Positions 824 through 12,682 of a stretch of DNA of 12,682 bases are shown here, piece by piece (the stretch's first letter is position 1; every line of letters begins with the position of its first letter). The translations under genes were made by a program, and so were the position numbers. Below the pieces are notes generated by a model, which was given only the letters and a program-made list of their open reading frames with translations, made no database searches and was not told the DNA's origin. Origin of the DNA: Jimgerdemannia flammicorona (Eukaryota; Mucoromycota; Endogonomycetes; Endogonales; Endogonaceae); contig RBNI01005360.1 in the NCBI GenBank assembly GCA_003990745.1, forward strand, positions 1 through 12,682. The letters are read 5' to 3'.

Positions 824-2913
824 TTAGAAGGGCGCATGTGGCAGTGTCTCGCCCTTGAGCCCAGCAAGCAGATTGGCGACCGCCATATGGCCCATCTCGT
901 CGCGGGTCTCGGTCGTCGCGCTGCCTATGGCACATGAGGATACGGCAGAAAAACAAAAGAGGAAGGAAACAGAAATATTGAGGTCTACGATATTTGACAG
1001 AATAACAAACATACGAGCCTTGTGGCTCAACTCACCGATGTGTGGCACGACGATGCAGTTCTTAAAGCCTAGTAGCGGACTGTCGGTTGGTAGGGGCTCT
1101 GGGGTTGTTACATCCAAACCTGCGGCTGCGATGAGGTTCTCTTGGAGAGCGCGGGCTTGTGGGGCAAGGCGGGGGGTGGGGGGCAGGGGCAGTGCCAAAA
1201 TGAGGAGTTAGGGGTGGGAGAATATTGAAATCTGTGTCATGCAACAATCACCAAATCCGGATCATTACAAGAATAATAAAAATGTTGGAAGCAAATCTTA
1301 AAGTCGGCTATAAACCTAGATCATCTTGGACGACATGTCCTCCTCTTGCCGTATTCACGAAGATCTATAATTGATCATCGAAATTACGTTACCGTATGAG
1401 AACACATCACAGCCATACATTTGCAAGCATCCGTCTCCCCGTCCGTCTCATCTCCAATTCCTTACACCAACTGTCCCACCCATTACGTACGATCCCTCCC
1501 CTATCTCTCCACCCAGCACCATCCACCATCTGTTTCTGCCGCTACCCACCGCGCTACTTTTCATTCTCCTGAACGCGTCGTAATTGAACATGCCCTTCGT
1601 CTCCTCTGTTAGCGCGCAGCACACCACGATAAAATCCGATTTCGCAAGTAGGTCGTGGAACGGCACATGTAGCGCTCCACCCAGTCGCGCCGCGGCCTCG
1701 TGCTTAGTACCCCGCCCGGAGTATAAAACTCGCGATATCCCGAAGGCGCGTAGTCGGTGCGCAACGGCCTCACCGATGCGGCCGAGGCCGACCACGCCAA
1801 GGGTTTTGGAGGTAAACTGGACACCTGGGATGAAATTCGATTGAGAAAAGATGTGGCGGGACACAGTAGCCATGAGGCAGAAGGCTGGAAAAGCGAGATT
1901 CCATCACGACGATAAGTAAAACGGTTTACCGCATAGCCAGTTAGGACCCCACTCTCTCCACTGGGTAGGATCGTTGTGACAGGTTACGTTCAGATCTTTG
2001 TGATTATTTATGCGGTACGTATTCTTGTTTGGACTGGCTTACCTCTCCATCCTCCACAGCTCTGATGCTCTGAGAATGTGAATAAGAACACGGGAATCGA
2101 CATCAATCTCGTAAATATCGCATCAGTTCCAGTGTTGCATATTCAACATCTACAATCTTCTCGAGCTCAATCCACCCTGCCACCTGACTACGCCATACAC
2201 GCCGCACGTCCTGGGCGAAAGCACATACATACCTCCTTCAATCGCCGAGCAGCCGCAAGGAGCAACATTACGGTGGTGTCCGCGGTCGCATCCGTGAGCA
2301 CGTCGGGCGTATATCCGAGTTTGATACCGCGCTGTTTGAGCTCCGCCGTATCTACGTGATCGAAACCGACGCTCATAGTGGACACCACCTTAAGTTTTGG
2401 GCCTGATGCGGCACGCAAACCAATGTGACGATAATCAGATCAATATGGGAGCATGGACCACAAGGAATCGTTTTACGCGGACTTTGTCGGATAAGTAACC
2501 TACCTGCAACTTTGAATAGCTCCTGGTCCACCTTGTCGGTTAACATGCACAGCAACCCATCAGCACCTGTTTGTTTTTGAATGTTCGATTAATGGAATCC
2601 GGATCAAATTTGACCGCGTTCGCAAAGTCTCGTGAAAAGCGTGAAGCTCGGATCGCATAATAAAAATACCTTTAATACTGTTTAGCAACAAGTCGCGTGG
2701 CATATTGCGGTCCTCTTTCCACTGCACCATCTCGACATTCGACAGTTTCTCCAGCGCCGCTTGCGAAGTGGGAGGCAGAACGCGGGTAACGACAATGCGC
2801 GGGATACTCATTCTCGCAGCGGTCAAGGAAAGGTGGCGGACTGTTTGCGGGGGGAAGAGAGAAGGTGCAAAGGGAGTTGCGAAGAGGGTTGAACCGAGGA
2901 CTCGCCGCGACAT
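824..2913 (-). CDS. GRHPR: Glyoxylate/hydroxypyruvate reductase (D-isomer-specific 2-hydroxyacid dehydrogenase), nine exons
   Basis: Reduces glyoxylate to glycolate and hydroxypyruvate to D-glycerate with NAD(P)H. Minus-strand exons: 2913-2670, 2566-2504, 2402-2233, 2069-2043, 1960-1930, 1824-1550, 1364-1316, 1155-1036, 924-824. They sum to 1080 nt, giving 359 residues, and all junctions are GT-AG and in phase. Residues 83-160 carry the substrate-domain motif STMSVGFDHVD. The Rossmann motif GLGRIG is at 191-196, followed by S-G-R (214-216), where Arg suggests NADPH preference as in the animal enzyme. The catalytic triad is present: Arg277 in TARG, Glu306 in TPEPLP and His325 in PHIG. The sequence aligns closely with animal GRHPR through to the C-terminus. 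The start ATG at 2913 gives a basic, Ser/Ala/Leu-rich presequence suggesting mitochondrial import. A second Met at residue 35 (2811) begins the catalytic domain and could give a cytosolic form. The frame is also open to an ATG at 3003. Exons 4 and 5 are microexons. Confidence 0.93.
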
Positions 2914-3457: not shown

Positions 3458-4285
3458 ACAAGGAAACACAATTGAATGGGACGAATCGTGGCAACGACTA
3501 AATGGCGCGCACGAAAAATTGTGTGGGGATACGGGTTTCTGCCGAGGTGGTACGTAATTATCTCATTCATACAAATGAACGTGTGACCATTGCAACATTG
3601 CCACCAGGCATGGCACAAACTAGAAGACCGCCTCTCGTACAACTATGAACAGCTGCAATGCGCGCGACTCAACAGGATCAAGCTTATAGCGAGCGGCGCG
3701 TCCGAGGCTCAGATTGAGAGGGCCGATTATGAGGTAGACGTCGCAGAAGCTTGCGTGGCAGAGACGACGGTTGAGATGGAAAGGTGTGGGACCACGGAGC
3801 CGGTAATCCATTGCGATTCGAGTGGCTATGAAGAGCCGAGCTGGGGTTTCGGCGAAATGGATAGGTGGAATGTCGTTGCGTTGGAGCTTGCGATACAAAG
3901 TATACTAATGAGAATGCCGTTATATTCAAGGTTTTTTTAATTTTATTTTTTTATTTTTAATCCATTCATTTAACCTTCTGCATTACCAACAGAAAGAGAC
4001 ATGAAAAACATACTGTGGGCTTTGAAAAAACACCTCCACCATCTCAACCCCACCACGGTCCAGTCGATAGACCCACGTCGCCATATGGAGTTCCTGCTGC
4101 CCGCGCGCGACACCGCTGCGTCGATAGTGGCTTCCGCTCGAGCCTACAGCATACCGGAGCCTTTGATCCGGCCGTATATCGATGGTGTCGCCAACCTAGG
4201 ACGGTGCATCGCAGAGGTGAGAAGCAATACATCCGAGCCCAGCAGAGAACCGACTCAAGAGTCGCTTGGGGAGGTGGGCGGGTGA
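3435..4285 (+). CDS. Hypothetical helical protein, three exons, 5' end uncertain
   Basis: No family recognised. Proposed exons: 3435-3549 (contains WDESWQRLNGAHEKLCGDT, donor GTACGT), then 3624-3899 (acceptor aactag, keeps phase) or less likely 3608-3899, then 3993-4285. The second intron is well supported: donor GTATAC at 3900, acceptor caacag at 3991-3992, phase 1, with a T-rich interior. It joins VALELAIQ to KRDMKNILWALKKH. The product is charged and mostly helical. It includes LEDRL or EDRL followed by a long Glu/Ala-rich helix, a Cys/Trp-containing acidic loop, and a C-terminal helix with IPEPLIRPYIDGVANLGRC. It ends at TGA 4283-4285, only 104 nt before the next start. Likely lineage-specific; the exon 1 to exon 2 junction and the true start need transcript data. 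Confidence 0.45.
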
Positions 4286-4389
4286 CTCAAACAATACGCG
4301 GAACGTTTGGTTTATAATCTTCGAAGATATGTGTTGGAAAATCCGGTGCCTGGTGAGTTTACCTGAAATCATATTAAGATTGTTGCAAA

Positions 4390-4827
4390 ATGACAGACGA
4401 AAGAACATTCTTAATCAGTTCTGGTCCCTTTGGTTTTCCGCGCCCAAACCATGTCGTTGTCACTGAAGTTGAAGTGCCTCCCAAACGTTGCCTCGAGGAG
4501 CGCCTCCAATGGCTCGAAATCGCCCTAAGGGAAGCACAGTACTCATCCAGATTACAGCAAGAAAAGGACTCCGGGAAGCCCAGAGATTATTACAAGATTC
4601 GGTACTGGAAAGGGGAGGTCGATAATTGCGACCGAACTTTGTTGGACACAAGGTCGAAACTGGCAAACATCGATGTCGATTGCGAAGGTTCAAAACTAGA
4701 AGAGAAGACCGAGGGACCATCGATGAAGCTCAGGTTTGAGAGGCCGACGTCCCACCAACACATCGCATGGCCAGACAAAGTGGATGTACCAAAGATGGGT
4801 GCAGCGGCATGCTACGTTGTGATGTGA
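4390..4827 (+). CDS. Hypothetical protein, single exon, 145 residues
   Basis: ATG 4390 to TGA 4825-4827, no intron needed. An N-terminal, possibly extended segment (ISSGPFGFPRPNHVVV) is followed by a charged helical region from LEERLQWLEIALREAQ (about residues 37-52) to DNCDRTLLDTRSKLANID (about 80-97), then a polar tail. No catalytic motif or membrane segment is seen. The LEERL helix followed by an SG step and a V-D-x-C pattern weakly recalls the LEDRL, SG and EVDVAEAC run of the preceding gene, so the two could be diverged tandem paralogues; this is a tentative reading by eye. AATAAA signals follow at 4971. It may alternatively be a last exon of the preceding gene. Confidence 0.5.
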   Translation: MTDERTFLISSGPFGFPRPNHVVVTEVEVPPKRCLEERLQWLEIALREAQYSSRLQQEKDSGKPRDYYKIRYWKGEVDNCDRTLLDTRSKLANIDVDCEGSKLEEKTEGPSMKLRFERPTSHQHIAWPDKVDVPKMGAAACYVVM

Positions 4828-4970
4828 CCTGGATGCTGTTCTCACGTTTGGCACGGTTACGAAATCTGGTCGATCTGGTAATATTTTTTTAAAATCTATT
4901 CGTTCAATCTTTTCGTACTACAAATGCGAGTAACATCATTCCTAAAATAATTGTCATGAATTAAACTCGA

Positions 4971-5000
4971 AATAAAATAAAATAAATAAAACGATAATAA
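4971..5000 (+). promoter_or_regulatory. AATAAA cluster, poly(A) signal for the hypothetical gene
   Basis: AATAAA occurs at 4971-4976 and again just after, in an A/T-rich run about 145 nt past the TGA at 4827. It is a likely plus-strand polyadenylation site. Confidence 0.45.
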
Positions 5001-5695
5001 TTTCCGTCTCATGGGTCACCTATCCATGCACAATCTCCGCCATCATCCTGGCCGTTATACGAGCGGCGTGTATTTATTTGTTTGTTTATTTATTTCTTCG
5101 AATCTATCGAAACCAAAAGAATCGGAGGAGATAGGGCAGGGGTGTGGAAACCCGAAAAAGATGTAGGACACAAAGCATTTAACTGCAAGCTCTCGATCAC
5201 AGCGTGGAGGAAAGGATTATGAAAGGAGGGAGCGAGTTGATGTTATAAATGCAACATGTAGAAAAACAAGAAAAAGAAGCTGAACGAGCAGACAGTTGGT
5301 CATGGCGTCAAGCACACGTTGATCTGTGTGAAAATGCTTGGGAGACTTGACAGGTCTCAAATTTGGTGAAGCTGCTGATAACAATTCTGCTAAATAATCC
5401 AACGTCGTATAGTGGGTGAAGTAACATGGATACGTATTTAGTTATCATGCGCTGGTGACAATTGCACAATGGCATGGGCGCCGAAACTCGGTTCGGAAGG
5501 CAAAAGATGAATCTAGTAGCCGTAGTAAGGGAGGGGGTGACCATTCAGCAATTTTTAATTACCCCCTGTGGATATGACCAGTTTGACGGCCTCTATTTTG
5601 GGATCATTGCTTCCTGAGGCGAATCGCCCAGGCAACACTCACGACAACCCTACAAAAGTACGACACCCTTTTAATCAAACTCCCTCCTACCTACC
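5001..5695. other. Intergenic stretch between convergent genes
   Basis: No supported gene. The minus-strand open frames here (for example 5308-5544) show no domain, splice pattern or codon character like the neighbours. A T-rich run at 5071-5097 contains AATAAA on the minus strand but is about 600 nt beyond the GTPase stop, so its role is unclear. I saw no tRNA-like cloverleaf. Confidence 0.5.
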
Positions 5696-6906
5696 CTATT
5701 CTCGATCCTCGACCTCGCACGCCTTCACAACCGCCCATCTGACCCTCTCTACTCCCTCACCCTTCTGATTTATACCGACTATAGGCTTATCTATCTGCTT
5801 CTCGAAATTTCTCCGTATCTTGTCATATTTCTCGGCCGACATCAGATCCGTCTTGGTCAGCACAATCTGGTATGGCAATTCTTTGGCGTTGAGCATGTCG
5901 ATGGCGTCGCGGTCGCGTGGTTTCAGGCCGTGTAACGGATTCAGAAGGAGAAAGATACAGCGTAGTCTGTAGAAAAAGGCGAAAGAAGGGGGGGAGGGAT
6001 AAGGAGAGGGCGTGGTGTGTGAGGGAGGGCAGGAAAAGAATGGACGTACGGGTCGCGACGGACAAAGTAGTCGAGGATCATGACGCCCCATTCGTTGCGG
6101 CTGCGGAAGCCATAGCCAGGCATGTCTACCAGGATGAGGCGATCGCCGATATTAAAGAAGTTCATGAGGCGCGTATGGCCCTGGTGAGAAAGGAAGGCGG
6201 AGATGACATGTTTTAGTTATTGACGGTTAGGTTGCTATGGCCCATACAGGGGAACACGAGTACTTACCGGATTTTTGGCCGTTTTGACAAGGCGCTTATT
6301 ATCCGTCAGGAGGTTTATTAGGGTCGATTTCTGAATACCGGGAATCAAGGAGAATTAGACACGAGAAAGTAAGGGTTCGGAACAAAAACACGAATGGATA
6401 TCGATTAGAAGATGTGACCCGACTAACCCCGACGTTACTTCGCCCAATAAACGCGACCTATCAAGGAACAACTTAATTTACCATCACAAAAATATGCAAA
6501 TTCAACTTCATCATACATCCAATCCCAAATCCCAAATCACTCGTCAACCCGAATTTCGCACCTCGGGCAACTTCGTCTTGGGCACCTGCTCGAATTTGGC
6601 CGCCGACTTGATAAACACGGCGGGCTTGGAAAAGATACTGTTTGCAAGCTTCAGCTGCGCCGGCGTCGGCTCCAATGGCGGGTCTTGGCTTGGCTCCTTG
6701 AGATTGGGTTTGACTGCGCTCTTCGCTGGCGGATCAGCATCTTTCGAGATCAACGGGGCTGGCGAAACTGAAGGGGATGCGGGTGCAGATGCCGGTCGTA
6801 AACGGGAATAGGCACGCGTGTGTGTGGTAGAAAGGGTGTGTGTGCTTCGAGTATATGATGGGAGGAGTGCGAAAAGGCGCGTGCGAGCAGGGATAATGGA
6901 GTTCAT
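5696..6906 (-). CDS. Mitochondrial EngB/YihA-type GTP-binding protein (GTPBP8-like), five exons
   Basis: TRAFAC GTPase of the EngB family, which acts in large ribosomal subunit assembly; eukaryotic members work in mitochondria. Minus-strand exons: 6906-6562, 6457-6428, 6330-6268, 6180-6050, 5966-5696. They sum to 840 nt (279 residues) with GT-AG introns in phase. Residues 1-40 form a basic, Ser/Thr/Leu-rich presequence without acidic residues, typical of mitochondrial import. A Pro/Lys-rich linker follows, then the GTPase domain from about 95. Motifs: G1 GRSNVGKS at 120-127, switch Thr in PGHT (149), G3 DMPG at 165-168 followed by the family-typical GYGF, G4 TKTD at 227-230, and a G5-like segment near 253. 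The start was chosen at 6906 because the longer frame upstream (to 6975) adds residues unlike a presequence. Transcribed divergently from the selenoprotein W gene. Confidence 0.92.
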
Positions 6907-7035
6907 GGTTTCGAGAAGATATAAGCCACCAGCCCTCGACCAAGCCACGAGATCAGCTGGCGTGCACGTGATCATTCAGGTCCAAATTCAAATCCAACAT
7001 TCCGCACATCTGCACATTCTCATCTCACAAGCAAC
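6907..7035. promoter_or_regulatory. Shared 129-bp divergent promoter interval with a CACGTG box
   Basis: The ATGs of the EngB-like gene (minus) and the selenoprotein W gene (plus) are 129 bp apart, so both promoters and 5' UTRs must lie here. A palindromic CACGTG is at 6965-6970; on the minus strand it reads TCACGTG, the core bound by bHLH factors such as Cbf1 in yeasts. No TATA box is evident. Function is inferred from position and motif only. Confidence 0.35.
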
Positions 7036-7611
7036 ATGTCTGGCGACGCTAAAGTCATTGTCCTCATCGGTTTTTGGTGAGCATCTCATTGATATTTGCT
7101 TTGTCCCGCTCATTTCCTTGTCTCTCACAGTCGATGGAACACTCTCTTAGCGGCGGGTGAGGCTACGCCCCCCGATCTCGTGCCATCCGGAAGGAGATCG
7201 AGACCAAATTCGGCGACAAGGTGTCGGTGGTGAGTTTCCCTCTGTTTCCTATACCCCGTATCCTCTGGGCCTGTCTATTCTCACAACAGGATAATCATAA
7301 TTTGCCCCACTACCAATGACACCACCTCATTTTCCGGTACAAAGACGGAGCGCGCGTCCCGCACCATCACGGGCGAGCTCGAAGTCTTCGTCGACGGCGC
7401 GCTCATCCACTCCAAGTTGAACGGGCAGGGCTACGTCGACTCCCGTATGAAGGTTGGCGACTTGGTATCGGTTTTCTGTCGCCATCGATCCGGAATTCCC
7501 TAACGCAAACCCGCCTTCTTCACAACCTCGCGCATATAGCTCGACAAGATCCTCGACGCCATCTTGTCCGCCCTCCCGGCGGACGTCGAGGAGGATTCGG
7601 GGTCGACTTGA
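7036..7611 (+). CDS. SELENOW: Selenoprotein W (SelW/Rdx family) with in-frame TGA selenocysteine, four exons
   Basis: Small thioredoxin-fold redox protein. Exons: 7036-7076, 7151-7229, 7345-7452, 7540-7611; introns are GT-AG and in phase; 99 residues. The first splice makes Cys14 from TG plus C, giving C14-G-G-U17 followed by GYAPRSRAIRK. U17 is TGA at 7158-7160. Downstream, TGELEVFVDG and HSKLNGQGYVDS match the animal SelW core in order and spacing, and the C-terminal helix LDKILDAILSALP aligns without gaps. The TGA sits exactly at the Sec position of CxxU, and homology continues past it, so it is not a terminator. The GGGTGAGG context mimics a splice donor, so gene finders may cut here. A SECIS-like hairpin follows in the 3' UTR. 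The start ATG has A at -3 and gives a normal family N-terminus. The gene ends at TGA 7609-7611. It likely acts in cytosolic thiol redox chemistry; the substrate is unknown. Confidence 0.9.
7158..7160 (+). other. TGA codon read as selenocysteine (U17)
   Basis: In-frame TGA inside exon 2, three residues after Cys14, at the Sec position of the CxxU redox motif. Strong family similarity on the 3' side and a SECIS-like structure in the 3' UTR support recoding rather than termination. Confidence 0.88.
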
Positions 7612-7674
7612 ACCCCTTATTTCGATTTCTCTCTTCTCATCCGTGGCACAATAACTCCAAACGCTCATCCCTCC

Positions 7675-7731
7675 CCACATGACGACCGTCGACGAAATCG
7701 GCGGTACCCGGTGTCGACGGCCCGAAGCTGG
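7675..7731 (+). promoter_or_regulatory. Type 2 SECIS element in the selenoprotein W 3' UTR
   Basis: The core begins with AUGA (7679-7682) and closes with GA (7724-7725). This allows the non-Watson-Crick quartet U7680-A7726, G7681-A7725, A7682-G7724, C7683-C7723. Helix II: G7684-C7722, one A-C mismatch, then eight perfect pairs of CCGTCGAC (7686-7693) with GTCGACGG (7713-7720), plus a G-U at 7694/7712. Twelve nt separate AUGA from the unpaired AAA (7695-7697), the canonical distance. A mini-stem CGG/CCG (7699-7701 with 7708-7710) with a 6-nt loop makes it type 2. Only a weak 3-bp helix I (7675-7677 with 7729-7731) is visible. It starts 67 nt after the stop codon. It is expected to bind SBP2 and direct Sec insertion. 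Confidence 0.85.
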
Positions 7732-8118
7732 ACTCCTAAATAGAGAGGTTCTTGGATTCGGGGGGATTCGAGGTTGGGGCTGAGTGCCTTTACTTATTTG
7801 TTTATGTATTATTATTGAGCTTTTTGTCTTGAAAAAATGACCGATTTGAAATGATTTTAAAAATACCGGGATGGACTGAGAAATTGATTGCGTAAAGTCG
7901 TACGATGGTCGCTAGGATACACGAACTTTAATCCATCCAACGCCAACATCATGAACAACGAGAAAAAACTCGAACCCAGGCACTTTCATATCAACCTCAA
8001 GTGATCTACAGCCGACGTATAAAGCACCTAACTCAGGAATTCTTTATGCAGATCAAACTCTATTCAAAAGACGCCCTCAAGGATCACACACTCCGATAGC
8101 AAAAACGCACAGACCACC
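7732..8118. other. 3' UTR and intergenic stretch between convergent genes
   Basis: This holds the rest of the selenoprotein W 3' UTR and the 3' flank of the convergent minus-strand gene. No further exon is supported. T-rich and A-rich tracts (7790-7860) could hold non-canonical poly(A) signals; no AATAAA was seen on the plus strand. Confidence 0.45.
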
Positions 8119-8192: not shown

Positions 8193-11147
8193 TTACCTCG
8201 CCGCCGACCCCATCCTCTCTCCTCCACCCCCCTTTCCATCCGCTGTCGCTGTCGTTTCGGTCCTAGCACCTGTACCACTCCCTCCAACCCCGCCGAACAC
8301 ATCGCTCAACCTCCTCCCCCGCACCACCGCGGCCGCCCCCTCTCCACCCCCGACAATCCCCAACCCAACCAACCCTGGCGCCCCCCCCCTCCCCCTATAC
8401 TCAAAATAGCCCTCGACGGCCTCCCTCTTGAAATTCTCCAATTCCCTCTTCAATGCCTCGCCGAACCTCGCTTCCTCCTCCCATGTCCCCCTCGACGCCG
8501 CACACCTAGCCTCCAACCTGTCCACCTCACCTCTAATTCTGTCTTCCTCCTCTCTCCCAACCTCGGTCTCCTCGCTCCTAACCCTAGCTTCATCTCTCCT
8601 CCTTTCCAATCTAGCCGTCCTAGCCCTCTCAACTCCAACAGCCCTCTCCGTATCCGCCATTCTCCCCGCCACATTCGGCCCCTCCATCCTTTCGACTCGC
8701 TGCACCGTTGCCGTGACCTCCGCATACTGCCCGTCCAGCTCCGCCATCCTCGCTTCCGTCACCATCATTGCTGAGCGCACCACCGTCCCAGAGCGAGAGG
8801 ACACGCGCTCGGACCGCTTGTGCTGCAGTCGGAGTGCCGTGTGCGTCTTGGCGAGGTCGTCGAGGCGGCGCGCGAGCGAAACCTGGGCGTCGTGGGCCGA
8901 GTGCGCGCGGTCCGCGAGCGAAAGGGTATCGACGTTAAGACGCGAGATCTGGTCCTCGAGCTGGTGGCCGCGTGCCTCGTTGCGCGCTTGATCTGTGGCA
9001 GAGGCTGGGGAGCGAGTGAAGGACCGGCGGAGGGATTCGGTTTCGGAGCGGAGTTGGGATTCGGAGCGGTTGAGGTCACGCCGAAGTTTCTTGAGAGAGG
9101 TTTGGGCATCCTTTTTGAGTTGCCGCTCGTGTTCTAGGGTCGAGTGAAGTTGGCGGTAGAGTTGGTCGGCGGCGAGAGGATCGGGGAGGGGCGGGGCGAG
9201 GGTAGTGTCGGGGTTGGTTGGAAGTGATGGAGAGGTAGGAGTTGGAGACGGGGGTGAGGATTGGGGTTGAGATGGCAGGTGTGCGTTTGTGCCGTGAAGG
9301 TGATCTGGACAGGGATATAAAAGAGATCGCATGTTAAAATTAAGCGCATTCACATGTAAGGGGGGTGGGGAGAGGAATAAATAATCCATGGGCCTAAAAC
9401 AGAGAAGGAAACCTCGCCCGAATTCGAAATAACCACTCGGCACCCCGAAGGTAACCCGTATTTGACAGTGTACCCACGGGGGACCCCAGCGTCACCTCAA
9501 GCCAAACCAATCAACCAACTGAACCTACTCAGAATACCCACCATCCTTGCTCGACGCCGTACACAGCCTGGCCCTTCCACACCACCTCCCGCTCTTCCCT
9601 CTCCCCCCGACGACGACCTCGACCATGTACTCCGTCTCCGGTTGCAGCCCTCCCACAACGACGGTGCGCTCATCGTCGTGCTCCACCAACGGGAATAGGT
9701 CGACCTGCGTCCAAGTGACGCCATCGACGCGCACGAGCACGCCCTCGGTTCGATGGCGTGTTGGGCGTGGGAGCTCGTCCGAATCGGACGAGTCGGAGGA
9801 TGATGATGACGACGGGGGTGGGGGAGACCAGGCAAATGTGGCGGCAGTGGGGGCGATGTCCGTCACGCAGAGGTCGGTAGTCGGATGCGGCGGTTTGAGA
9901 CAGCGGTGGTGTAGACGGGGGTTGTCTAGGGAGGAGGAGGAGGAGGAGGAGGAGGAGGAGGAGGAGGAGGAGGAAGAGGAGGAAGTGATGGAGGAAAGGA
10001 GGGAGGAGGATACCGACGAAAAAGAGTGTGGCTTCGTGCCGTTCGCTTCTTTGCCCTGTCGCGACAGGCTTCCTCCCTTAATTGCCAGCCCGGGTAACCG
10101 CCCCACTGCCGTCCGTAAACTAGTGTGTGTCATCCTCGCCGACCTCACCCTCCGGCTCTCACCGGCTCCCTTCATCTTCAACGCCCATGCCACGACCTCG
10201 GCATTCGCATATATCCCATAACTGATCGCATGGGTGGCCAGCCACGTTGCCCACGGGTCCTCCCTCCTCTCAACTTCCCTGCCGACATGCGACGCACCGG
10301 CCGGCGGACGCGCCCAAACATCGACTCCCGCGAACGCACCCCATACTACCCAGCTCGCGGCATCACCCCACCCGCGCACGAGCGAGACCATGTACAGATA
10401 CACCAGTGCGTTTCCAACGTGGGACGCCCATGCGGCGCCCCAGGAGGTTCTTGTGGCGAGGTAGAAGACGCTGAGGTCGAGGATGGCCATGAACGTTGCG
10501 AATGCGAGGAAGATACGGGTGGAAGTGCGGTATGCGCGTGTGTATGTCTCGATGGAGAGGAGACAGAAAAGGAGGTGCTCGATACAGGGGGCCGGAGTGG
10601 CGGTGTAGTGGGTGGGCATGAGGGCGGTGTTAAGGGCGAGGAGGACGAAGTAGAGGGCGAGAAGATCCAGGAGTTTGTAGTGCGAGAAGAGGTCCTCGAT
10701 GCGGTGCCAGTGTGGTTTTGCAGACATCGTAGTAGTTACAGCAGTCTCGGAGGCGGGGTAGGAGAGCGAGGCAGAGGAGGCAGAGGAGTCGCTGGAGTCG
10801 TTATCGTCCGCGAGGGACGGTGCGGGGGTCGGGGTGGAGGTGGCGAGGACGCGTATGTCGGGACGGTGGGAGGGATGGGACATGGATGGGGTGTTGGGGT
10901 GGGGCAGTTGTGGTGGGGTTAGGGTTGGGGTGGTGGTTGGAGTTGTAGTGGTATGCTTGCGCAGGGTGGCATTCGCCTGCGGACGCTCCTGCATATTTGT
11001 TGGTGTATAGAGAGTCCTGGCTTTGTAGGAGGATGTGACAGGCTTTTGGAGGATTTTTTTTACCGTCGATGCCTTTTTCTTCAGAGCCCCCATTTGCCCC
11101 TTTTGTTGACTGGTCCTCGCAAACTGCCGCAGTCTGTCACAAGACAA
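8193..11147 (-). CDS. Multi-pass membrane protein with poly-Ser tract, fibronectin III domain and long coiled coil (two exons)
   Basis: I read two large minus-strand frames as one gene: exon 11147-9542, intron 9541-9305 (donor GTGGGT, acceptor tgtccag), exon 9304-8193. The junction is phase 1 on both sides, giving GAT (Asp), and the joined protein is 905 residues. Order: Thr/Pro/Ser-rich N-terminus (1-140), four to six hydrophobic segments (about 158-178, 188-201, 211-231, 241-258, 263-278, 300-323), poly-Ser (about 385-408), and FN3-like domain (about 425-530; VTDIAPTAATFAWSPP, then VRVDGVTWTQV and LQPETEYMVEV). Then come a Pro/Ser linker, a coiled coil (about 584-834) and a Gly-rich tail. 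Filamentous fungi have proteins with N-terminal membrane anchor, FN3 and coiled coil, which supports the join; their function is not established here. Start is uncertain (Met19 at 11093 is another choice). A donor-like GTAAAT overlaps the stop codon, so a small extra exon is possible. It may instead be two genes. Confidence 0.6.
9931..9986. repeat. GAG/CTC trinucleotide microsatellite encoding poly-serine
   Basis: Near-perfect tandem GAG triplets (interrupted by GAA near 9972 and 9981) lie inside the minus-strand FN3/membrane gene. In the coding frame they read as TCC/TCT serine codons. A looser GAG-rich tail runs to about 10010. Confidence 0.85.
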
Positions 11148-11302
11148 ACATATCTATTCCACTGCCATACTAACTTATCCTTTGATTTATTGTTCGTGTT
11201 TAAAAATTTCTTGGAACCAAAAACAATGCTTTACCACTATTATAAAGCATCCCAAAGGTCCATCTATAAAATCTTTATATTACCCCCCCCCCCACCTCAG
11301 CC
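11148..11302. other. Short intergenic region: 3' UTR of E1 beta gene and promoter of the FN3 gene
   Basis: 155 bp separate the E1 beta stop (11303) from the ATG of the downstream minus-strand gene. The region holds AATAAA on the minus strand at 11191-11186 (112 nt past the stop, a likely poly(A) signal), an 8-bp inverted repeat at 11226-11250, and a C-run at 11283-11294. Confidence 0.5.
11226..11250. repeat. Inverted repeat (hairpin) in the E1 beta 3' UTR
   Basis: ATGCTTTA (11226-11233) and TAAAGCAT (11243-11250) are perfect 8-bp complements around a 9-nt loop. It lies between stop and poly(A) signal of the E1 beta gene. It is AT-rich and short, so it could be chance. Confidence 0.45.
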
Positions 11303-12649
11303 TCAATACTCGACGACCTTTTTAATCCCCTCAAAGCACCTTATAATATCCGGCATATAAAACTTCTCGAAAACCAGCGGGAACGGCGTGTCCCACCCGC
11401 ACACCCTCTGCACGGGCGCCTCGAGTCTGAGGAAGCACCGCTGCGTGATTTCGGCCGCGATCTCGGCCGCGAACCCCTGCGTGCGTGGGGCCTCATGCGC
11501 GACCACCAGCCGGCCTGTCCGGTTCACCGACGCTGCAATCGTCTCCGCGTCCCACGGCAGGATGCTACGCAGGTCGATCAGCTCGCAGCTCAGCCCGGGG
11601 ATCCGCTTCTCCGCCATTTGGATCGCGTTCTCCAAGACATACATCTGAGAGCCCCATCCGACCACGGTCACGTCCTTGCCCTTTTTGACAATTTCGGCCT
11701 TACCAAGCGGAAGCTCGTAGTCGCCGACGGGGACTTGCTCAACTATTTTCGAGAATTAGACAAATAATTTGAAGATTCAGACGTAGAATGGTTAATAAAG
11801 TTTGGGTAACGTTCCAGGGCCTCAATCCAACCAGGCCAATATCTCGTCACCCACCCCCAAACTCACCCGCGGACCGATACAAAATCTTAGGCTCAAAGAA
11901 CACGACGGGGTTCCTATCCCTAATCGACGCCAGCAACAACCCCTTCGCCTGAATCGGGCCACGCGGGATCACGACCTATCCCGACAAAACAATTTACATC
12001 AGCATACTGTTAACTCCCCGACACGCAAATTCATCCAGACACAAACCTTGATGCCAGGTGTATGTGCAAAGTAGGCTTCGGGGCTCTGAGAATGGTAGTG
12101 GGCGCCGTGGCCGACAGCCGAGCAGGGCGATCGAAGGGTCAGCCCCCCTACATTGAAGATGCCGCCGGAGCGGTAACGGTACTTGGCGGCCTCGTTGACA
12201 ATCTGTTGAGGTTGGTGGGATGAAGATATGAATTAACTGCATACGCTTGAAGAAATTAAGCTGTACTGTACATAAAAATGCTCCTTCACTCTATCTAGAC
12301 TCACACCAATCGCCCCTCCCGCCCACCCAACCTCCCCTCCTTCCCCTCCCCCCCAAAAAACACCCTACCTGATCAAACGCCGGGAATATATAATCCGCAA
12401 ACTGAATCTCCGCAATGGCAGTATGCCCTACAGATGCCATACCAATCCCGAACCCGGCAATCCCCTGCTCAGTCAGTGGTGTATTGAACACGCGGTCACG
12501 GCCAAAGGTCTCGGCCAGCCCTGTGGTGCAACGGAACACACCACCAAAGGCCACATCCTCGCCAAAGATTACCGCCGTCTCGTCTGTCGCCAGCGCAATT
12601 GCCATCGCGTCGTTCACAGCCTGGAACAGATTCATTTTGCGAGTTTCGC
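11303..12649 (-). CDS. BCKDHB: Branched-chain 2-oxoacid dehydrogenase E1 beta subunit, partial (5' end beyond right edge)
   Basis: Beta subunit of the thiamine-diphosphate-dependent E1 component that oxidatively decarboxylates the 2-oxoacids of Val, Leu and Ile in the mitochondrial matrix. Minus-strand exons: 12649-12369, 12202-12047, 11975-11867, 11742-11303; all introns are GT-AG and in phase, giving 327 complete residues to the stop. The first exon shown opens with [10 protein letters not shown] after the acceptor cctag (12654-12650), so upstream exon(s) with the mitochondrial presequence lie outside. Family landmarks: [32 protein letters not shown] (Glu of the ThDP site), [28 protein letters not shown] with conserved His, FFEPKILYR, and the C-terminal [10 protein letters not shown] and VCGWDTPFP. 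The sequence follows animal BCKDHB closely along its length. FRCT and the EPKILYR segment favour BCKDH over pyruvate dehydrogenase E1 beta. Confidence 0.94.
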
Positions 12650-12682
12650 CTAGGAAGCAGAAAGTGAGGGTGAGTTTTTTTT

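What the first reader, a model, noticed from the sequence alone, without database searches (positions are those of the whole stretch)
7036..7611. Selenoprotein W gene with an in-frame TGA in a probable fungus
Seen: an in-phase four-exon model gives C14-G-G-U17 with the TGA at 7158-7160 as U, and family-like sequence continues for 80 residues after it. Known: this is the CxxU motif of SelW/Rdx proteins. Sec use is absent from Dikarya and has been reported only in a few early-diverging fungal lineages. Inferred: this organism keeps the Sec machinery (tRNA-Sec, EFSec, SBP2, SPS2), and automatic annotation would have truncated or misspliced the gene.
Basis: partly seen in the sequence, partly recalled or inferred. 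Interest (0 to 1): 0.9.

Follow-up and report, generated by a model that had tools for sequence, protein, structure and literature searches.

The report
Selenoprotein W gene in Endogonales fungus
A soil fungus carries a small gene whose internal stop codon very probably encodes selenocysteine, the 21st amino acid, and its genome holds nearly all of the machinery needed to read it that way, adding a species to the few fungi known to use it.

Summary
Four exons (7036-7611) with GT-AG introns give a 99-residue selenoprotein W (Pfam Rdx 45.3 bits, cut-off 22.6) whose only internal stop is TGA 7158-7160 at the family's Sec position (CGGU). Fifty-seven bases after the stop codon, 7669-7735 resembles a SECIS element: 20.1 bits, under Rfam's cut-off of 35, yet the only Rfam match at E<=10 in the window. 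The same assembly holds a tRNA-Sec (anticodon TCA), EFSec, SecS, an SBP2 domain, and an SPS2 gene with its own in-frame TGA. PSTK was not found, by a search that found no clear Kti12 either. The SPS2 contig identifies the organism as Jimgerdemannia flammicorona (Mucoromycota, Endogonales). Its public SPS2 protein starts after the TGA and the protein search returned no SelW, so annotation seems to hide both. Sec use in fungi is known, including Bifiguratus adelaidae of the same order. This is a new member of a known kind; the near-canonical fungal SECIS adds interest. There is no transcript or protein evidence.

The parts
7036..7076 (+). SelW exon 1 (start codon to TG of Cys14)
   Evidence: GT donor at 7077
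7151..7229 (+). SelW exon 2, holding the CGGU motif
   Evidence: one search match with 1 TGA inside
7158..7160 (+). In-frame TGA, read as selenocysteine (U17)
   Evidence: at the Sec position of SelW
7345..7452 (+). SelW exon 3
7540..7611 (+). SelW exon 4 with the terminal TGA stop (7609-7611)
7669..7735 (+). [quoted passage not shown]
   Evidence: Rfam SECIS_1 20.1 bits, below the cut-off of 35; the only Rfam match at E<=10 in the window

Best explanation
The locus is a selenoprotein W gene of the fungus Jimgerdemannia flammicorona. UGA 7158-7160 is decoded as selenocysteine: SPS2 makes selenophosphate, SecS makes Sec on tRNA-Sec, EFSec delivers it, and SBP2 bound to a SECIS in the 3' UTR (7669-7735) directs it. 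The product is a small redox protein with the active site Cys-Gly-Gly-Sec. Shown: gene model, TGA position, homology on both sides, machinery genes except PSTK, and a second TGA-bearing selenoprotein gene (SPS2). Inferred: that UGA is decoded as Sec in the cell, that the 3' element is the working SECIS, and the redox role, taken from the family.
For: Rdx 45.3 bits over cut-off 22.6; SelW best PDB match; one internal stop, at the Sec position; no in-frame splice around it from the same donor. SECIS_1 match 57 bases after the stop, the only Rfam match at E<=10 in the window and no SECIS_1 match in three other stretches, 27.9 kb. tRNA-Sec 72.8 bits, cut-off 47, anticodon TCA. EFSec 378 bits against 164 for archaeal SelB. 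SecS 398 bits. SBP2 E 7.8e-23, next L7Ae-type protein 0.0083. SPS2 of 12 exons with one in-frame TGA in LKG-U-GCK.
Against: No transcript or protein evidence. PSTK not found. SECIS_1 score under the Rfam cut-off; genome-wide SECIS_1 search listed nothing, this site included; the stretch folds no better than shuffles (z -0.60) and the SECIS-like fold I evaluated (-15.5 kcal/mol) is less stable than the best fold (-21.5). SPS2 has no SECIS_1 match. The GPx search found no third selenoprotein.
Confidence: 0.92

Rival explanations
1. The TGA is a sequencing or assembly error, or a nonsense mutation, in a Cys-type SelW gene or pseudogene.
For: Single copy in one draft contig, no reads seen.
Against: The change would have to fall on the family's Sec codon, and a second gene, SPS2, has its only in-frame TGA at its own Sec codon. 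Frames, GT-AG introns and the rest of the protein are intact. Sec machinery is present.
Confidence: 0.04
2. The gene is a selenoprotein, but 7669-7735 is a chance match and Sec insertion uses another, non-canonical RNA signal.
For: Below Rfam's cut-off; weak fold statistics; SPS2 has no SECIS_1 match. From recall, not from a call: the 2019 study says most fungal selenoproteins lack consensus SECIS elements.
Against: Only Rfam match at E<=10 in the window, right strand, 57 bases past the stop; ATGA and AAA at the usual spacing; a similar ATGACG...CGAA hairpin 223 bases after the SPS2 stop.
Confidence: 0.2
3. The Sec genes come from another eukaryote contaminating the assembly.
For: Draft assembly of 7754 contigs; only SPS2 was placed in a tree; the SelW contig itself was not.
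Against: SPS2 groups with Endogone at 100/99 support and is identical to the public J. flammicorona protein, though that protein may come from the same assembly; Endogone is an independent genome.
Confidence: 0.03

Closest known systems
Selenoprotein W (SELENOW; Pfam PF10262 Rdx), mouse SelW PDB 2npb
   Same: Rdx domain, CxxU at the N-terminal end, Sec codon TGA, similar length (36% identity to the aligned mouse fragment)
   Different: CGGU where the mammalian motif is CGAU (mammalian U recalled; the collections write C); longer acidic C-terminal end; fungal host
Sec-using fungi reported by Mariotti et al. 2019 (paper not held; outline from passages in PMC10386755, PMC11378755, PMC7988114)
   Same: Sec machinery and selenoproteins in early-branching fungi; Bifiguratus adelaidae is in Endogonales like this organism
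   Different: J. flammicorona is not among the six species names that PMC7988114 prints for the nine. A near-canonical SECIS is present. Whether SelW was among the earlier fungal selenoproteins could not be checked.
Eukaryotic SECIS element (Rfam RF00031 SECIS_1)
   Same: ATGA quartet, helix, AAA in the apical loop, GA on the 3' side
   Different: 3' quartet reads CGA instead of the consensus TGA; 20.1 bits, under the cut-off of 35

Membership tests
Selenoprotein W | Rdx domain | tested here: met
   45.3 bits, cut-off 22.6; best PDB match SelW 2npb
Selenoprotein W | CxxU with TGA at the Sec codon | tested here: met
   C14-G-G-U17, TGA 7158-7160; aligned with CGA[U/C] of mammalian SelW
Selenoprotein W | Selenium in the protein | not testable with these tools
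   Needs 75Se labelling or mass spectrometry
Eukaryotic SECIS element | Rfam SECIS_1 over the gathering score | tested here: not met
   20.1 bits against 35
Eukaryotic SECIS element | ATGA / NGA core, helix, apical AA, in the 3' UTR | tested here: met
   descriptors were written after seeing the element
Eukaryotic Sec-decoding trait | tRNA-Sec with TCA anticodon | tested here: met
   72.8 bits, cut-off 47; ARAGORN
Eukaryotic Sec-decoding trait | EFSec | tested here: met
   PF21208 70.2 bits; eEFSec 378 bits in PDB for exons joined by eye
Eukaryotic Sec-decoding trait | SecS | tested here: met
   PF05889; 3hl2 398 bits for exons joined by eye
Eukaryotic Sec-decoding trait | SPS2 | tested here: met
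   12 exons, in-frame TGA; 3fd5 397 bits. Single exons were under the TIGR00476 cut-off
Eukaryotic Sec-decoding trait | SBP2 | tested here: met
   7zjw_B SBP2 E 7.8e-23 for an L7Ae-domain piece joined by eye; the rest of the protein was not traced
Eukaryotic Sec-decoding trait | PSTK | tested here: inconclusive
   No match with TIGR03575; four weak PF08433 hits, none clearly PSTK or Kti12

The most novel reading that the evidence does not exclude
Endogonales keep the ancestral eukaryotic Sec system, with a near-canonical SECIS and SBP2, so that fungal Sec insertion need not be mechanistically altered; and Sec use is wider in fungi than reported, hidden because annotated SPS proteins (Endogone, Polychytrium, Paraphysoderma) lack the Sec region.
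Probability: 0.55. Interest if true: 0.62.

Novelty: new member of a known kind. Interest (0 to 1): 0.5.

Why it matters
Fungi were long held to lack selenocysteine; nine species were reported in 2019, and a 2021 proteome survey (PMC7988114, passages) still concluded that fungi do not encode it because no annotated protein held U. This genome shows how that conclusion can arise: the public SPS2 protein begins after the Sec codon and no SelW protein was returned. A second Endogonales genus with the trait fits inheritance within the order. A fungal 3' UTR with an almost standard SECIS gives a concrete element for testing how fungi insert Sec.

Tried and rejected
The Rdx HMM on the unspliced assembly found nothing; the spliced protein found its own exons 2-4 only. 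SelW alone gave 4 candidates and no match in the protein collection. The genome-wide SECIS_1 search listed nothing. Glutathione peroxidase, tried as a third selenoprotein, gave nothing; such searches are weak for intron-rich genes. The 18S search did not complete twice, so the species rests on SPS2. Of the four weaker tRNA-Sec candidates, ARAGORN called a tRNA-Ser or tRNA-Leu at three and no tRNA at one. The PSTK search with KTI12 gave four weak hits; the best scores exactly at the KTI12 cut-off when scanned alone (22.0) but runs into what looks by eye like a dCMP deaminase, so neither PSTK nor Kti12 is clear.

Chance SECIS: my loose descriptor (8 or more pairs, one mismatch) hits 25 times in 145,388 strand-bases, 3 of them with 10 or more pairs as here; some loci overlap, and the SPS2 element is included. 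Of 2000 shuffled UTRs, 138 have some hit. The stricter form (8 or more contiguous pairs) hits 5 times in 125,588 strand-bases and once in 24,864 elsewhere in the window. Both were written after seeing the elements. No count was made on the shuffles at 10 or more pairs.

Full report
The observation. The translation has one internal stop, TGA 7158-7160, at residue 17 in C14-G-G-U17. With C for U the protein is a Pfam Rdx member (45.3 bits, cut-off 22.6), and its best PDB match is selenoprotein W (2npb, E 4.5e-13; 36% identity to the aligned fragment). From the exon 1 donor the only AG in 7091-7229 that keeps the frame is the one before 7151. A search of the assembly (134.8 Mb, 7754 contigs) with the spliced protein found exons 2-4 on this contig and nothing else.

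The 3' UTR. The stop codon, itself TGA (7609-7611), is followed after 57 bases by a match to Rfam SECIS_1, 7669-7735, plus strand, 20.1 bits. This is under the gathering score of 35. But with the whole window against all 4227 families it is the only match at E<=10 (E 7.6), and stretches of three other contigs, 27.9 kb, gave no SECIS_1 match. It has ATGA, an 8-bp helix, AAA twelve bases after the quartet, and CGA on the 3' side. Against it: no stronger fold than shuffles (z -0.60), a competing fold that is more stable, and no listing in the genome-wide search. A similar ATGACG...CGAA hairpin stands 223 bases after the SPS2 stop, but Rfam does not see it. I take 7669-7735 as the probable SECIS, not as shown.

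The machinery. tRNA-Sec: one locus over the cut-off, 72.8 bits, anticodon TCA. SecS: exons on C622; best PDB match 3hl2, 398 bits. EFSec: C934; eEFSec 378 bits, archaeal SelB 164, EF-Tu 124. SBP2: C2088; 7zjw_B SBP2 E 7.8e-23, the next three E about 0.008. SPS2: twelve exons on C4700, 11 introns all GT-AG, one in-frame TGA in LKG-U-GCK; 3fd5, 397 bits. PSTK: nothing with TIGR03575; four weak PF08433 hits, none clearly PSTK or Kti12. Since Kti12 should be in every fungus (recalled), that search says little.

The organism. The best relative of SPS2 is a J. flammicorona protein whose longest contig, 13,600, equals C4700 in length. The two are identical over 310 columns, and with Endogone they form a group of support 100/99. 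J. flammicorona and Bifiguratus adelaidae are both in Endogonales. The public protein starts at MDSAVMN, after the Sec codon, and keeps an intron. The Endogone and Polychytrium proteins start at the same place, the Paraphysoderma one lacks the Sec region, and the Gonapodya one reads SWGCKVPQ there. Hidden UGA codons are the likely reason, not tested on DNA.

Literature. The 2019 report of Sec in nine early-branching fungi is not held. Passages in PMC10386755, PMC11378755 and PMC7988114 give its outline: seven of nine in Harpellales, with Bifiguratus adelaidae and Gonapodya prolifera among the names. PMC7988114 argues that fungi lack Sec because annotated proteins hold no U; the SPS2 annotation here shows why that test can fail. 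PMC12611240 (passages) reports expressed selenoproteins and machinery in Zancudomyces. A search for two or more of Jimgerdemannia, Endogonales, selenoprotein and selenocysteine found 3,335 papers, 20 listed. One, PMC10386755, held all four, and its passages do not link them; papers with just two of the terms were not all seen. PMC12574304, on an Endogonales-related genome, has no word beginning with 'selen' in its main text. That most fungal selenoproteins lack consensus SECIS elements is recalled.

Verdict. A genuine selenoprotein W gene in a fungus, in a genome with every searched part of the Sec machinery except PSTK. The species and gene look new to the literature that I could search; the kind is known. 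The near-canonical SECIS and the hidden annotation are what a specialist would follow.

Noticed in passing
window 7609-7743, + strand: The SelW stop codon is itself TGA, and the same frame stays open for 43 codons after it, through the SECIS-like element, to a TAG. Probably chance.
   Followed up: partly
L018 (G000:C4700) 3659-5830: SPS2 gene of 12 exons with in-frame TGA at 3833-3835 and an 8-nt micro-exon (3933-3940) coding part of VPQ; the public protein P0001 starts after both.
   Followed up: yes
P0002, P0003, P0010, P0118: Public SPS proteins of Endogone, Paraphysoderma, Polychytrium and Gonapodya lack or garble the Sec region, which suggests hidden UGA codons and wider fungal Sec use.
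   Followed up: partly
window 1448-2439, - strand: D-isomer specific 2-hydroxyacid dehydrogenase gene in several exons (Pfam 2-Hacid_dh_C 86 bits and 2-Hacid_dh 51 bits).
   Followed up: no
window 5696-6975, - strand: By eye an EngB-like GTPase gene, divergent from SelW; Pfam found nothing in the two ORFs tested.
   Followed up: no
window 11303-12682, - strand: Transketolase C-terminal domain (120 bits); by eye a branched-chain 2-oxoacid dehydrogenase E1 beta gene cut by the contig end.
   Followed up: no
window 9525-11153, - strand: 542-codon open frame with membrane-like segments by eye and a sub-threshold fn3 match (20.3 bits, cut-off 25).
   Followed up: no
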